Origin: Herpetosiphonaceae bacterium
Lineage (GTDB): Bacteria; Chloroflexota; Chloroflexia; Chloroflexales; Kallotenuaceae
Length of the DNA stretch: 64,000 bases
Reading direction: 5' to 3'
Assembly: GCA_036374795.1 (NCBI GenBank)
Contig: DASUTC010000123.1
Span: forward strand, 1 to 64,000
Within the stretch, counting starts at the first letter, position 1. Each line of letters opens with the position of its first letter. The notes under the pieces are model-generated. The model saw only the letters and a list, made by a program, of their open reading frames with translations, had not been told where the DNA came from and searched no databases. Of this stretch, positions 18,669 to 45,083 are shown in pieces. The position numbers and the translations under genes are program-made.

Positions 18669-18755
18669 GCCGAGGTGGCGGAATTGGCAGACGCGCTACT
18701 TTGAGGGGGTAGTGGGGGCAACCCCGTAAGGGTTCAAGTCCCTTCCTCGGCACCA
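18669..18755 (+). tRNA. tRNA-Leu (anticodon GAG)
   Basis: The 87-nt class II tRNA has a 7-bp acceptor stem (GCCGAGG with CCTCGGC), encoded CCA, and a long variable arm (GTGGGGGCAACCCC). The anticodon stem CTACT/GGTAG encloses the loop TTGAGGG, giving GAG. The T-arm reads AGGGTTCAAGTCCCT. It is first in the Leu-Val-Phe cluster. Confidence 0.95.
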
Positions 18756-18767
18756 ATGTTACCTTGT

Positions 18768-18843
18768 GGGCGATTAGCTCAGTTGGTAGAGCGCTTCGTT
18801 TACACCGAAGATGTCAGGGGTTCGAGTCCCTTATCGCCCACCA
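18768..18843 (+). tRNA. tRNA-Val (anticodon TAC)
   Basis: The 76-nt tRNA has the acceptor GGGCGAT/ATCGCCC with encoded CCA, a D-arm GCTCAGTTGGTAGAGC, and the anticodon stem CTTCG/CGAAG enclosing TTTACAC, giving TAC. It lies 12 nt after tRNA-Leu and is probably co-transcribed. Confidence 0.95.
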
Positions 18844-18892
18844 TGTGTAACCAAACAACCGATAGCGCCAGTCGGAAGTCGGCGCGGGGCAT

Positions 18893-18968
18893 GCCAAGGT
18901 AGCTCAGTTGGTAGAGCACACGCCTGAAAAGTGTGGGGTCACCAGTTCGATCCTGGTCCTTGGCACCA
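18893..18968 (+). tRNA. tRNA-Phe (anticodon GAA)
   Basis: The 76-nt tRNA has the acceptor GCCAAGG/CCTTGGC with encoded CCA, a D-arm GCTCAGTTGGTAGAGC, and the anticodon stem CACGC/GTGTG enclosing CTGAAAA, giving GAA. It is the last gene of the cluster and is followed by a terminator. Confidence 0.94.
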
Positions 18969-40297: not shown

Positions 40298-42352
40298 TAC
40301 GTCCACCTCTCCCAGCACCAGCGCGTCGCTCTCCACGGGCTGCCGCGTGTCACCGATCGGCAGGCGCGCGCCGTCCTCAGGCCGGTACACGCCCAGGCGC
40401 AGCACATAGCGACCGGGCGGCAGCGTCGCGGGCAGCGGCAGCGCGCGATCGTCGTGGTAGAGCATGCCGGGCTGCGTCCAGAGCCGCGTCGGCTGGCCGC
40501 CCTCCATCGGACGACCGTCGAGCTGCGCCAGCGGCTTGGGATCGTCGGGGAGCGTCAGGTGGACGAATACCTGATAATCGGTGCCGTCGAGCGAGCGCAG
40601 CGGCTCCCAGAAGAGCGAGAGCGGCAGCGTCCCGCCTGCATGGATACCTGTGGAGAAGGGCGTCAGCGTATAGCCGCGCAGCTTGAGCGCATCGCCGAAG
40701 CGCGCCTCGACCGGATGCTCGATGCGGCTGCGGACGGTCGGAATATTGTTGCAGTACAGCCGCACGCCGACAAAGCCCGCGTAGGGCACCTCGCCGCACT
40801 GAAGTCGATCGTTGAGATCGCCGTACTGGAAGGCCAGCCCGACCAGGCCCAGCTCATCGCCCTGTTTCGGCGGATCGGCTACTCGCGCGTGGTCCGGCGC
40901 GATGATCAGCCAGGCGCGCTTGCGGCTGCCGAGATCGGCCCGAATCTTCCAATCGAGTTCGCGCAGACCAAAGCCCTCGGCCCGCCCCAGCTCAGGGTAG
41001 GTCGTCGGCTCCGGCAACGGCTGATCCGAGACGCGCGGCGCGTAGTAGCGGTACAGCGGCAGGATCGAGTCGGGATGGACGATCACCAGGTCGTCGGGGT
41101 GGACGTGCCGGGCAAGTCTGGCAATCGCGTCGCGGTAGTTCTCTTTGACGATGCTGCCGCTGAAGATGCCTTTTTCGGGCAGGGAGAGCGCCCAGCTTGA
41201 GACGATCAGCGCGCCGACGAACACCGCCAGCGCCGCAAGCTGCCCGCCGAGCCGCGCAACATGCACGCGGCGCAGGTTCAGATCGCGCCACTCAGGCAGG
41301 CTCCAGCCCAGGGCCAGCAGCCAGAAGGGTAAGACGATCGTCAGGTAGCGCGCCTCGAACGCGGGCTGAACAAGCAGTACGATCGCGAAGAGCAGCGCGG
41401 GAAGGCCGCCAAGCGCCAGCACCAGCAGCGTGCCCCGTCGATCCGCGCGCCGCAGATCGAGCAGCAGCCGCAGACCGCCGAGCAGCATCAGCAGCGCAAA
41501 CGGCAGCAGCCAGAGCCGACGCACCGCGCCGGGCCACTGTCCGATCGCAAACTGGCTGAAGGTGAGCCATGCCGCCCGCACGGGACCGACCGCCGCGAAC
41601 TGGCCGCCCGCGTTTTGATACGCCAGCGAGAAGGCCAGCGCCGCCACCAGCGCGCCGCCCATCAGCGCCGCGCCCGCCAGCACCCAGCGCCGCCAGCGAT
41701 GCTCCGTCGCCAGCGCCCACGTGACGACGCAGCCCAGCAGCGAGAAGACCAGCAGCCGATGGACGAACGGCGCGACCGCAGCGACCGCGACGAAGACCAG
41801 CCAGCTTCGGCGGGTGTTCGATCGCAGCGCGCGCATCAGCGCCCAGGCCAGCACGATCGCCGTCAGCAGCGTCAGGCTGTACGCTTTCGCATCCTGCGAT
41901 TGCCAGATCCCGAACGGCGAGAGCAGCAGCAGCAGCGCCGAGGCCAGGCCAAGCACCCAGCCGCGCACGACGCGACCCAGCGCGAAGATCGCCGGAACCG
42001 CCAGCGCGCCCGCCAGCGCCGACGGCAGCCGCAGCGCCCACTCGCCGTCGCCGAGCAGCCGCGTATCGAGCTTCAGCAGCACGTGAAACAGTGGATACGC
42101 CTGCGACGGACGGAAGAGATCGAGCAGCAGCGTGCTGATCTTGCTGCCTGTCACCTGCGCCCAGGTCGTGCCCTCGTCCAGCCAGAGCGGCTGCGCGTCC
42201 AGGCGGTAGAGTCGCAGCCACAGCGCGGCCACCAGCAGCAGCGCGATCGGCAGCCACACGGCCAGCGCGGAGGAGCCAGTGAAGGGTGAGATCGATACCG
42301 AATCCGGCTCTTTGTTCTTTGTTCTTTGTTCGCTGTGCTCGACCAGCCTCAT
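40265..42352 (-). CDS. GT39/GT83-like membrane glycosyltransferase with C-terminal beta domain
   Basis: The 695-residue product has about eleven membrane helices and the catalytic-type motif LWLDEGTTWAQ after helix 1. A soluble C-terminal half contains a jelly-roll-like region (about 560-685; FGDALKLRGYTL, LPLSLFWEPLRSLDGTDYQVFVHL, PPGRYVLRLGVY). That tail, recalled from other Chloroflexota glycosyltransferases, may bind carbohydrate. The N-terminal EHSEQRTKNKEP and the C-terminal EEPRTKNLKL are both repeat-encoded. The ATG overlaps the upstream dehydrogenase stop (ATGA), so it is coupled to UDP-sugar synthesis. Confidence 0.88.
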   Translation of the reverse strand: MRLVEHSEQRTKNKEPDSVSISPFTGSSALAVWLPIALLLVAALWLRLYRLDAQPLWLDEGTTWAQVTGSKISTLLLDLFRPSQAYPLFHVLLKLDTRLLGDGEWALRLPSALAGALAVPAIFALGRVVRGWVLGLASALLLLLSPFGIWQSQDAKAYSLTLLTAIVLAWALMRALRSNTRRSWLVFVAVAAVAPFVHRLLVFSLLGCVVTWALATEHRWRRWVLAGAALMGGALVAALAFSLAYQNAGGQFAAVGPVRAAWLTFSQFAIGQWPGAVRRLWLLPFALLMLLGGLRLLLDLRRADRRGTLLVLALGGLPALLFAIVLLVQPAFEARYLTIVLPFWLLALGWSLPEWRDLNLRRVHVARLGGQLAALAVFVGALIVSSWALSLPEKGIFSGSIVKENYRDAIARLARHVHPDDLVIVHPDSILPLYRYYAPRVSDQPLPEPTTYPELGRAEGFGLRELDWKIRADLGSRKRAWLIIAPDHARVADPPKQGDELGLVGLAFQYGDLNDRLQCGEVPYAGFVGVRLYCNNIPTVRSRIEHPVEARFGDALKLRGYTLTPFSTGIHAGGTLPLSLFWEPLRSLDGTDYQVFVHLTLPDDPKPLAQLDGRPMEGGQPTRLWTQPGMLYHDDRALPLPATLPPGRYVLRLGVYRPEDGARLPIGDTRQPVESDALVLGEVDVEEPRTKNLKL
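42308..42340. repeat. Heptad repeat, copy 12, (GTTCTTT)n at an N-terminus
   Basis: CTCTTTGTTCTTTGTTCTTTGTTC is a pure 7-bp tandem array. It encodes EQRTKNKEP near the N-terminus of the downstream glycosyltransferase. Confidence 0.85.
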
Positions 42353-43677
42353 AGCAGCACGACTTTATCGCGGCCTTCCTGCACGTTGCGGGTCGCGTTA
42401 CGGGTATCCACCACCACCGCCGACTCGCGCACGATATGCTCGTAGTCGAAGGCGCGATGGTTCGTGATAATCACCACACAGTCGGCGCTACGCAGCAGAT
42501 CGTCGGTCAGCGGCGTCGTGCGGTGCTCGTGGCCGTGATGATCGCAGAAGACCTCGACATGTGGATCGACCGTCACCACCTGCGCGCCCTCCGCCTCCAG
42601 CAGCTCGATGATCTTGAAGACCGGCGACTCGCGGTAGTCGTCGATGTCGGGCTTGTACGCGACGCCCAGCAGCACCACCGTCGCGCCGTTGATGCTCATC
42701 CGCCGCCGGTTGAGTCCGCGACCGATCAGGTTGACCACGTGGTAAGGCATGCCGTTGTTGATGTGCCCGGCCAGCTCGATAAAGCGCGTGTGAAAGCCGT
42801 ACTCGCGCGCCTTCCAGCTCAGGTAGAACGGATCGAGCGGGATGCAGTGACCGCCCAGGCCCGGCCCCGGCGTGTGCTTCATAAACGCGAACGGCTTGGT
42901 CGCGGCGGCATCCAGCACTTCCCAGATATTCAGATCCATGCGGTCGCAGAGCAGCGCCAGCTCGTTGACCAGCGCGATGTTGACGTTGCGGAAAATATTT
43001 TCGACCAGCTTGGTCATCTCTGCCGTTCGCGCCGACGAGACTTCGACCACCTGCTGCACGATCTGGCCGTAGAGCGCCGTCGTCAGCGCGGTACACGCGC
43101 CCGTCACGCCGCCGACGACCTTGGGCGTGTTCTCGACCGTCCAGCCCTGGCTGTTGGTCTGGCCGGGATCGATCCGCTCCGGCGAGAACGCCAGGAAAAA
43201 ATCCTCCCCGACCGTCAGGCCGCGCGCCGCGAAGCGCGGCAGCAGCACCTCGTCGGTCGTGCCGGGCCATGTCGTGCTTTCGAGCACGATCACCTGGCCG
43301 GGACGTAGCGTAGCCGCAATCGCATCGCCCGCCCGCTCGATGTAGGAAATATCGGGCTGTCCGTGCTCATCCAGCGGCGTCGGCACGCAGATAATGATCG
43401 CGTCGCACTCCGCCAGACGGCTAAAATCGTTGGTCGCCGCGAAGCGGCCCTCCGTCACCAGTGGCGCAAGATCCGACGACAGAACATCGCCCACATAGCT
43501 CACGCCGCGCATGATCTGCTCGACACGCTCAGGGCTGACATCGAAGCCCAGCACGCGAAATCCGGCGCGCGCCGCCCGCGCCGCCAGGGGCAGACCCACG
43601 TAGCCCAGCCCATTGACCCCGATCAGCACATCCCGTCGCGCGATGCGCTCCTGCAAATCCGCAAATTGTTGCTTCAT
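42349..43677 (-). CDS. UDP-sugar 6-dehydrogenase (WbpA/WecC/TviB-like)
   Basis: The 442-residue NAD-dependent enzyme has the Rossmann motif GVNGLGYVGLPLA, CVPTPLDEHGQPD, ESTTWPGTTDEVL, and the catalytic Cys in GPGLGGHCIPLDPFYLSWKA, followed by GVAYKPDIDDYRESP. The pattern matches dehydrogenases acting on UDP-N-acetylhexosamines, giving uronic acid donors for surface polysaccharide. UDP-glucose cannot be excluded. The ATG at 43677 lies just outside the right end of the IscB element, so its original leader has been replaced and no clear Shine-Dalgarno is present. The stop overlaps the next glycosyltransferase start. Confidence 0.93.
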   Translation of the reverse strand: MKQQFADLQERIARRDVLIGVNGLGYVGLPLAARAARAGFRVLGFDVSPERVEQIMRGVSYVGDVLSSDLAPLVTEGRFAATNDFSRLAECDAIIICVPTPLDEHGQPDISYIERAGDAIAATLRPGQVIVLESTTWPGTTDEVLLPRFAARGLTVGEDFFLAFSPERIDPGQTNSQGWTVENTPKVVGGVTGACTALTTALYGQIVQQVVEVSSARTAEMTKLVENIFRNVNIALVNELALLCDRMDLNIWEVLDAAATKPFAFMKHTPGPGLGGHCIPLDPFYLSWKAREYGFHTRFIELAGHINNGMPYHVVNLIGRGLNRRRMSINGATVVLLGVAYKPDIDDYRESPVFKIIELLEAEGAQVVTVDPHVEVFCDHHGHEHRTTPLTDDLLRSADCVVIITNHRAFDYEHIVRESAVVVDTRNATRNVQEGRDKVVLL

Positions 43678-43694
43678 AAAAACCGGCGCGGAAA

Positions 43695-43714
43695 CCCGCC
43701 CGTTTACGGGTGGG
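43695..43714. repeat. Right-end subterminal hairpin of the IscB element
   Basis: CCCGCCCG (43695-43702) pairs with CGGGTGGG (43707-43714; one G-T pair) around TTTA. The iscB TAA stop lies within it. The matching left-end hairpin is at 45039-45058. Confidence 0.75.
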
Positions 43715-44879
43715 AGGAAGCGCCGCCTCCGTGCTGATAGGAATAGCCATCACTCCGCTGAAGGCGTTGGCAATACCGATGCGTGATGCCCTGGACCGTG
43801 CCGCTGGCCGTGGTGATATTGAAGCTGCCACTGGTCCGCACCGCCACGCGCCCGACAAACGTGCCGCGCTGCTTCCCGTGAGGCACCACCGCGCGGATCA
43901 GGAGCGGGTCCACGCCCCGTGTTCGCAGATCCTCCGGGGTGGACGCGCCGACGCACGCGGCATCCAGCCAGTGGGCTTTCGGCAGGCCACGCCGGGTACG
44001 ATTGAACTTCGTGCGACCGCCCGACCCAACCTCGACCAGCAGCCTTGCTGCGACGAGGCGCTGGTAGAGCGCCCAGCGCGTGCTATTGACCGCAGCCGCA
44101 GCCTTCAGTGGCTGTTTGGCTCGGGCCTGAAGGTGCGGATAGCCAAATTCCGCCGCCGTCTGATTCCCTTTGCGATGGTTGCAGGCGTGGCAGGCCAGCG
44201 TTAAATTGCTGACCCGATTGGAGCCACCACGACTCTTGGGAATCAGGTGTTCAATCTCCAACGGCACGTTGGTCGCGCCACAATAGGTACAGCTCCGCTG
44301 CCATTTGGCGAGCACGTACTCCCGCACCTCGTAGCCCGCCAGGTCGCCCTGCTGATACTGGACGCCCCGGATCTCGGCATCTTGCAGTTGCTGGGTATCG
44401 AAGCGCACCAGTTCGACACTGATCGCCCCGATGGGCGCGGAGCGCCGTAGCCGTTCGACCCAGGTCAGCGTGGTCTGGACCCGATGCTCGAGGCTGGGAG
44501 CAAGCCAACCGACGGGACGCCTGCGGTTGAGAAACTGGGCTTGCCGGTACCGCGTCTTCCGCTGCCGCCGATTGCGCCGGATGGCGCGCCGCGCCAGGAG
44601 CCGATCGCGAATCTGCTGGCCGCGATGGGTCAGTTCGGCCGCCCAGACGACGTGGCCGGTGGTATCGTTGACCACCGCGATGCCCGTCGTCTGAGACCCG
44701 GGATCGAGCTTGAGCCGCAGCGACTCCGGGTCGGCGGTGCGGACTGTCTTGAGGATGAGGGTGAACGGATAGCGTCGCCACACGGCGGCTTGTCCACTCG
44801 ATAAGAGCTTCCGTGCGTGCGCTGGATGGACCGGATCGCAGGGCTGTTTGTGGGTGTCGATGACCAAGACATGACTCAT
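43704..44879 (-). CDS. iscB: IscB RNA-guided nuclease (RuvC plus HNH)
   Basis: The 391-residue product matches IscB, the ancestor-like relative of Cas9. Seen in order: a PLMP-like N-terminus (residues about 12-36, HPAHARKLLSSGQA), RuvC-I with Asp59 in LDPGSQTTGIAVV, an Arg-rich bridge helix (RRAIRRNRRQRKTRYR, 97-112), RuvC-II with Glu156 in ISVELVRFD, and HNH (Cys197/Cys200, Glu210-His211 in IEHLIPKSRGG, Asn225, Cys230/Cys233, His235, Asn239). RuvC-III follows with His303 and Asp306 in HWLDAACVG, then a C-terminal region ending YCQRLQRSDGYSY. All catalytic residues look intact. At 391 residues it is at the short end of the family. It is not Cas9: no recognition lobe and no CRISPR array. Confidence 0.92.
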   Translation of the reverse strand: MSHVLVIDTHKQPCDPVHPAHARKLLSSGQAAVWRRYPFTLILKTVRTADPESLRLKLDPGSQTTGIAVVNDTTGHVVWAAELTHRGQQIRDRLLARRAIRRNRRQRKTRYRQAQFLNRRRPVGWLAPSLEHRVQTTLTWVERLRRSAPIGAISVELVRFDTQQLQDAEIRGVQYQQGDLAGYEVREYVLAKWQRSCTYCGATNVPLEIEHLIPKSRGGSNRVSNLTLACHACNHRKGNQTAAEFGYPHLQARAKQPLKAAAAVNSTRWALYQRLVAARLLVEVGSGGRTKFNRTRRGLPKAHWLDAACVGASTPEDLRTRGVDPLLIRAVVPHGKQRGTFVGRVAVRTSGSFNITTASGTVQGITHRYCQRLQRSDGYSYQHGGGASSHP

Positions 44880-45083
44880 ACAAAAACCTCTCTGCTTGCG
44901 CAGGTGATGGTCGCCTCGCTCAGTGGATCGGGCTTCTTCGATCCAGCCGCTTCACCCCTTGCCCCAGGGTGTCATGACCCGATCAACGGTTCCCATCACG
45001 CGATAGGGAGCTGGTCAGTATGGGCTTGTTCGCACAAGCCACCCCGTTCACGGGGTGGTTACTGACCTATCTCACACTCTGTT
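44880..45083 (-). ncRNA. Putative omega-RNA (HEARO) of the IscB element with 5' guide
   Basis: The minus-strand leader of iscB is non-coding and folds well. An outer stem GGTCAGTA/TACTGACC closes a three-way junction holding CCACCCCG-TGAA-CGGGGTGG and CTTGT-GCGA-ACAAG. Further stems follow: CCC-AUC/GAU-GGG, CACCC/GGGTG and GGATCG/CGATCC, ending next to the iscB ATG. This matches the known position and style of omega-RNAs, in which the guide is the 5' segment just before the first stem. Here that would be about 16 nt, AACAGAGTGTGAGATA (45083-45068), immediately after the neighbouring gene's stop codon. The boundary between guide and scaffold is inferred. Confidence 0.75.

What the first reader, a model, noticed from the sequence alone, without database searches (positions are those of the whole stretch)
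43704..45083. Apparently intact IscB nuclease with a structured omega-RNA leader
The ORF has every recognisable IscB part (PLMP-like N-terminus, RuvC-I Asp59, bridge helix, RuvC-II Glu156, HNH Glu210-His211 with a four-Cys zinc site, RuvC-III His303/Asp306). The 200 nt before it, transcribed in the same direction, fold into a three-way junction closed by GGTCAGTA/TACTGACC. The seen residues and stems support a working RNA-guided nuclease at the short end of the family (391 residues), from a lineage (inferred Chloroflexota) where IscB is known to occur. Activity is inference.
Basis: partly seen in the sequence, partly recalled or inferred. Interest (0 to 1): 0.85.

Follow-up and report, generated by a model that had tools for sequence, protein, structure and literature searches.

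The report
Internally deleted, probably inactive IscB element
This is a recognisable copy of a known mobile gene for an RNA-guided DNA cutter (IscB), but both the protein and its guide RNA have lost a piece that every relative checked keeps, so it is probably a broken copy and not a working enzyme.

Summary
The ORF at 43704-44879 (-) is an IscB: 432 bits to NF040563, with all RuvC and HNH catalytic residues present. The RNA upstream, 44904-45066 (-), is a HEARO/omegaRNA. But "apparently intact" is wrong.

Compared with a 429-aa sister copy in the same genome and 32 other full-length homologues, the protein alone lacks a 38-residue segment between residues 328 and 329. This is the conserved Wedge motif (GHGTRQMC...YGFP...GFQTGD), which in OgeuIscB binds the nexus stem and pseudoknot. 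The missing DNA is 114 nt, flanked in the sister by the near-repeat CTGATCC/CTGGTCC.

The RNA lacks 48 nt: the hairpin whose loop forms the nexus pseudoknot. In all 25 homologues aligned, that loop pairs with a downstream triplet and covaries; the window keeps only the 3' half. Its Rfam score (52.9 bits) falls below the gathering threshold of 83; the sister scores 106.7.

The element (43684-45066) sits between a glycosyltransferase gene and a UDP-sugar dehydrogenase gene, directly before the latter's ATGA start. A same-genus genome has the empty site. The host genome shows only a fragmentary Y1 transposase match.

Best reading: a known kind of mobile element, internally deleted and most likely inactive. 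Loss of activity is inferred, not measured.

The parts
43684..45066 (-). Whole inserted HEARO/IscB element. The right end may extend to 43678, just before ATGA.
   Evidence: Identity with the sister copy starts exactly at GTCAGTAA. Joined flanks align through the junction with the empty site of same-genus G001.
45067..45082 (-). Position of the ~16-nt guide (host flank read into the 5' end of the omegaRNA): ACAGAGTGTGAGATAG
   Evidence: Sequence and the known IscB layout (PMC9640706). The only exact match in the genome is this locus; near matches are no commoner than with the reversed control pattern.
44904..45066 (-). HEARO/omegaRNA, 163 nt, lacking the nexus pseudoknot hairpin
   Evidence: RF02033, 52.9 bits against gathering 83; alignment A2; folds
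44967..44969 (-). Junction of the 48-nt omegaRNA deletion (GACACC^CTGGGG)
   Evidence: Comparison with the sister copy
43704..44879 (-). iscB reading frame, 391 aa, catalytic residues retained, 38-aa internal deletion
43895..43901 (-). Junction of the 114-nt in-frame iscB deletion (between I328 and R329), at CTGATCC; the sister has CTGATCC ... CTGGTCC
43684..43727 (-). Right-end hairpin overlapping the iscB 3' end (CGGCGC...CCCACCCGTAAACGGGCGGG...GCGCCG)
   Evidence: Fold, z-score -2.41; shared with the sister copy
43674..43677 (-). ATGA directly after the right end; also the start codon of the UDP-sugar dehydrogenase gene (42349-43677)

Best explanation
It is a copy of a HEARO/IscB element (the ISC branch of IS200/IS605-type elements) that inserted between a glycosyltransferase gene and a UDP-sugar dehydrogenase gene, immediately before the latter's ATGA start. 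After it split from its sister copy it lost 114 nt inside iscB, probably by recombination at a short direct repeat, and 48 nt inside the omegaRNA gene. In an intact copy, the RNA carries about 16 nt of the left flank as its guide and the IscB-RNA complex cuts the matching site next to the target-adjacent motif. Here the protein lacks the Wedge motif that grips the nexus stem and pseudoknot, and the RNA cannot form the pseudoknot, so assembly and cleavage most likely fail. Shown: homology, insertion, both losses, conservation of what was lost, and absence of an intact Y1 transposase in the assembly. Inferred: loss of activity, and the order and mechanism of the deletions.
For: IscB and HEARO identity. 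All 33 distinct full-length homologues keep the segment that the window lacks; four viral-contig homologues also keep it, judged by match length. The segment aligns to OgeuIscB residues 369-380 and beyond, which contain the contacts R373, H374, R376, Q377, A378, C379 (omegaRNA), H380, K381 (TAM) and A382 (target-strand phosphate) (PMC9640706). The pseudoknot triplet pairs in 25 of 25 homologues, with GCC/GGC, GCT/AGC, TCC/GGA and CTC/GAG variants (0 of 500 shuffles reach the paired fraction or covariation score); the window has only the 3' triplet. Empty site in G001. Only a Y1_Tnp match to 35 of 121 positions, with a stop inside, in the genome.
Against: The frame is open and the protein deletion is in frame. 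dN/dS against the sister is 0.15, and the window has no significant excess of amino-acid changes over the sister (20 against 14, p = 0.39). So the lesions are recent or the protein is still under selection; the data cannot separate these. No activity was measured.
Confidence: 0.8

Rival explanations
1. A working, naturally miniaturised IscB in which the nexus pseudoknot and the protein motif that binds it were lost together, leaving a smaller but active RNA-protein complex.
For: Both losses hit the same physical site in the known structure (PMC9640706). The frame is preserved, catalytic residues are intact and dN/dS is low. The 5' guide-adaptor and the outer helices still form.
Against: Unique among 34 full-length sequences. 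Pseudoknot replacement abolished activity in OgeuIscB and nexus-hairpin truncations reduced it in OrufIscB (PMC9640706, PMC13180657). The TAM and target-phosphate contacts (H380-A382 equivalents) are lost too.
Confidence: 0.06
2. One reading: an intact IscB that is merely short.
For: All catalytic residues and a 5' RNA structure are present.
Against: The shortness is an internal deletion of invariant sequence, not a short family variant. The HEARO score is below threshold for the same kind of reason.
Confidence: 0.03
3. The two gaps are assembly errors in a copy that is really intact.
For: Draft assembly of 373 contigs with 4.9% estimated contamination; no reads could be inspected; a sister copy exists.
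Against: Sequence on both sides of each junction differs from the sister by about 15-21%, so a collapse between the two copies does not explain it. The coding gap is in frame and the RNA gap is separate.
Confidence: 0.06
4. A defective copy that still matters in trans: its RNA is used by the sister IscB, or the protein binds something without cutting.
For: A sister IscB gene with a complete HEARO RNA is in the same genome; HNH and RuvC motifs are retained.
Against: The RNA lacks the pseudoknot and the protein lacks the RNA-binding motif. This is not the engineered R-IscB case, which removes the TI domain and keeps the Wedge/P1D (PMC12991159); here it is the reverse.
Confidence: 0.05

Closest known systems
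HEARO/IscB nucleases, e.g. MG35-1 (429 aa; PMC9755519), and the sister copy G000:C347:195061-196347 (429 aa)
   Same: Same domain order, catalytic residues, 5' omegaRNA position and left-flank guide layout; the sister element has the same ends
   Different: The window copy lacks 38 conserved residues of the Wedge segment and 48 nt of the omegaRNA
OgeuIscB-omegaRNA (PDB 7xht, 8csz, 8ctl, 7utn; PMC9640706)
   Same: PLMP, RuvC, bridge helix and HNH regions alignable
   Different: OgeuIscB has the Wedge contacts R373-A382 and the nexus pseudoknot; the window has neither
Engineered R-IscB (TI domain removed; PMC12991159)
   Same: An IscB with part of its C-terminal half deleted
   Different: R-IscB keeps the Wedge/P1D and loses TI. 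The window keeps the sequence after the deletion, predicted as TI strands only in a low-confidence model, and loses the Wedge motif
Rfam RF02033 HEARO RNA
   Same: Matches the model end to end, same 5' helices and 3' GAGGC segment
   Different: Below the gathering score; the nexus pseudoknot hairpin is absent

Membership tests
IscB (RNA-guided endonuclease) | Curated family profile (NF040563) and RRXRR domain (PF14239) | tested here: met
   432 bits against cut-off 175; 225.8 bits against cut-off 25
IscB (RNA-guided endonuclease) | RuvC D-E-H/D and HNH catalytic residues with four zinc-site Cys | tested here: met
   D59, E156, H211, C197/C200/C230/C233, H303, D306 invariant in A3, window included
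IscB (RNA-guided endonuclease) | Wedge omegaRNA-binding motif (GHGTRQMC...GFP...GFQTGD) | tested here: not met
   Absent in the window, present in all 33 distinct homologues; maps to OgeuIscB R373-A382
IscB (RNA-guided endonuclease) | RNA-guided, TAM-dependent cleavage | not testable with these tools
   Needs a biochemical or plasmid-interference assay
HEARO/omegaRNA (RF02033) | Score at or above the Rfam gathering threshold | tested here: not met
   52.9 against 83 bits; the sister scores 106.7
HEARO/omegaRNA (RF02033) | 5' guide-adaptor helices directly upstream of iscB | tested here: met
   Helices 1-3 of A2 and the fold of the window RNA
HEARO/omegaRNA (RF02033) | Nexus pseudoknot (hairpin loop paired with GAGGC downstream of the nexus stem) | tested here: not met
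   25 of 25 homologues pair with covariation; the window lacks the 5' half
IS200/IS605-type (ISC) mobile element | Discrete element with an empty site in a relative and a hairpin end | tested here: met
   Empty site in G001; right-end hairpin
IS200/IS605-type (ISC) mobile element | Y1 transposase TnpA in the element or genome | tested here: not met
   None in the element; one 35-of-121-position match containing a stop in the genome. Published HEARO nucleases are only sparsely near TnpA (PMC9755519), so this does not exclude an ISC origin.

The most novel reading that the evidence does not exclude
A naturally miniaturised IscB complex that works without the nexus pseudoknot and without the Wedge motif that grips it: protein and RNA shed the same contact site together and the remainder is still an active or binding-competent RNA-guided protein.
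Probability: 0.05. Interest if true: 0.75.

Novelty: new member of a known kind. Interest (0 to 1): 0.22.

Why it matters
It prevents a decayed copy from being put forward as a ready-made ultra-compact nuclease, and shows that catalytic-residue checks alone miss internal losses. The apparently intact sister in the same genome is the better candidate. If, against expectation, the deleted pair worked, it would show that the nexus pseudoknot and Wedge motif can be dispensed with together, which would matter for the design of small editors.

Tried and rejected
(1) Relaxed selection as a sign of decay: conserved-position substitutions (8 in the window against 5 in the sister) and lineage-specific amino-acid changes (20 against 14) are not significantly raised, so decay rests on the two deletions, not on substitution rate. 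(2) Natural counterpart of TI-deleted R-IscB: rejected, because the deletion is in the Wedge/P1D. (3) AlphaFold model of the window protein: mean pLDDT 58, pTM 0.35, too poor to use or to fold-search. (4) Guide targets in the own genome: no second exact match. (5) Other copies with the same deletion in 158 genomes of the class or in IMG/VR: none. (6) Promoter and terminator scan of the region: nothing found. (7) Literature on decayed IscB or on start-codon insertion of IscB elements: nothing relevant found.

Full report
What is there. The minus-strand ORF 43704-44879 (391 aa) matches RRXRR (225.8 bits) and HNH profiles in Pfam, the curated NCBI family 'RNA-guided endonuclease IscB' (432 bits, cut-off 175), and the solved IscB structures including OgeuIscB. 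D59, E156, H211, H303, D306 and Cys 197/200/230/233 are invariant in the family and present here. Upstream, 44904-45066 (-) matches the HEARO/omegaRNA model end to end at 52.9 bits, E 1.9e-9, but below the gathering score of 83. The default Rfam scan therefore did not list it.

It is not intact. The same genome holds a second IscB element (G000:C347, locus L060) whose RNA scores 106.7 bits and whose protein has 429 residues. The two elements are 79% identical over 1225 nt and then 85% over 230 nt, separated by a gap in the window copy. Residue by residue, the window protein lacks 38 residues between I328 and R329. They correspond to QATGHSSRQMCRMDRYGFPRTGPKGARVIRGFQTGDLV in the sister. Every one of 33 distinct full-length homologues, from Chloroflexota, Cyanobacteria and Pseudomonadota records and from unnamed relatives, keeps this segment. 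Four IMG/VR homologues also keep it, judged by match length. Eight of its positions are invariant in a 14-sequence alignment. In the sister, the 114 nt are flanked by CTGATCC and CTGGTCC, a plausible recombination footprint; the mechanism is inference.

What the missing protein segment does. A profile of the homologues aligns the segment's start, GHGTRQMCR, to OgeuIscB RRHDRQACH380. In the OgeuIscB structure (Kato et al. 2022, PMC9640706), R373, H374, R376, Q377, A378 and C379 of the Wedge domain contact the nexus stem, the nexus pseudoknot and the linker. H380 and K381 contact the TAM duplex, and A382 the target-strand phosphate. The window protein has lost the equivalents of all of these. 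The sequence that forms the TI domain, after the deletion, remains, so this is not a natural version of the engineered TI-less R-IscB (PMC12991159).

What the missing RNA segment does. The 48 nt absent from the window RNA comprise a hairpin, GTCCGG..GTTGCCAG..CCGGAC, the 3' strand of its enclosing helix, and the 5' strand of the next helix (fold of the sister RNA). In the 25 homologues aligned, the hairpin is 95% paired. Its loop triplet pairs with the triplet after the nexus stem in every sequence, as GCC/GGC, GCT/AGC, TCC/GGA or CTC/GAG (0 of 500 shuffles reach the observed pairing or covariation score; slid registers give at most 45% paired). I identify it with the nexus pseudoknot of the published structures by position and pairing. 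The window keeps only GGC, without a partner. Replacing the pseudoknot loop abolished editing by OgeuIscB (PMC9640706), and even small truncations of the nexus hairpin reduced OrufIscB activity (PMC13180657).

The element and its site. Identity between the two copies begins at GTCAGTAA (45066) and ends at the right-end hairpin. Joining the window's two flanks gives a sequence that aligns through the junction with the glycosyltransferase / UDP-sugar dehydrogenase intergenic region of same-genus genome G001 (76.5% over 434 nt). That is the empty site, so the element is an insertion. Its right end abuts ATGA, which is the start of the dehydrogenase ORF. Seven further Chloroflexota-group copies (L060, L061, L062, L063, L064, L065, L095) abut an ATGA or GTGA that opens an ORF of at least 133 codons. 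My recollection is that HEARO elements were originally described as integrating next to ATGA/GTGA (Weinberg and colleagues, 2009); I could not read that paper here. The only Y1 transposase match in the genome covers 35 of 121 profile positions and contains a stop, so no obvious mobilising enzyme is present in this assembly.

Is it still under selection? Against the sister, dS is 0.71 and dN/dS 0.15; window-specific changes are not significantly in excess (20 against 14, p = 0.39). Most of the divergence thus accumulated under constraint. Either the deletions are recent or the remaining protein is still used. This is the main reason for not putting confidence above 0.8.

Verdict. A known kind of element, HEARO/IscB, in an internally deleted copy. 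The claim that it works like an IscB is unlikely: two parts needed in characterised relatives are gone, one from each partner of the complex. Descent from the IscB family is well supported by profile; membership as a complete, functional IscB fails two tested features. The most novel reading, joint loss of the pseudoknot and its binding motif as functional miniaturisation, is not excluded but is improbable.

Limits. No reads were available to check the junctions. The structure prediction was too poor to use.

Noticed in passing
L060 (G000:C347:195061-196347, -): Apparently intact sister IscB (429 aa, the same length as the active HEARO nuclease MG35-1) with an above-threshold HEARO RNA (106.7 bits) in the same genome; a better candidate for an active enzyme than the window copy.
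   Followed up: partly
L060, L061, L062, L063, L064, L065, L095 and window 43674-43677: IscB elements repeatedly sit directly before an ATGA/GTGA that is a host gene's start codon, so the guide region covers the gene's former ribosome-binding region (e.g. GAGGAGG in L060).
   Followed up: partly
L025, L067, L113/L114: Other broken IscB copies: L025 (Nostoc mirabile) lacks RuvC-II and HNH in one frame; L067 and L113/L114 are split between frames. Decayed copies appear common in the family.
   Followed up: no
L029 (G000:C210:33821-33928): Only Y1 transposase trace in the genome: 35 of 121 profile positions with a stop inside.
   Followed up: no
window 44953-44970: The omegaRNA deletion fuses CACCC to GGGTG, predicted to form a new short hairpin (CACCC..GGGTG) in place of the lost nexus hairpin.
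   Followed up: partly
window 18669-18965: Three tRNA genes in a row on the + strand (Rfam RF00005).
   Followed up: no
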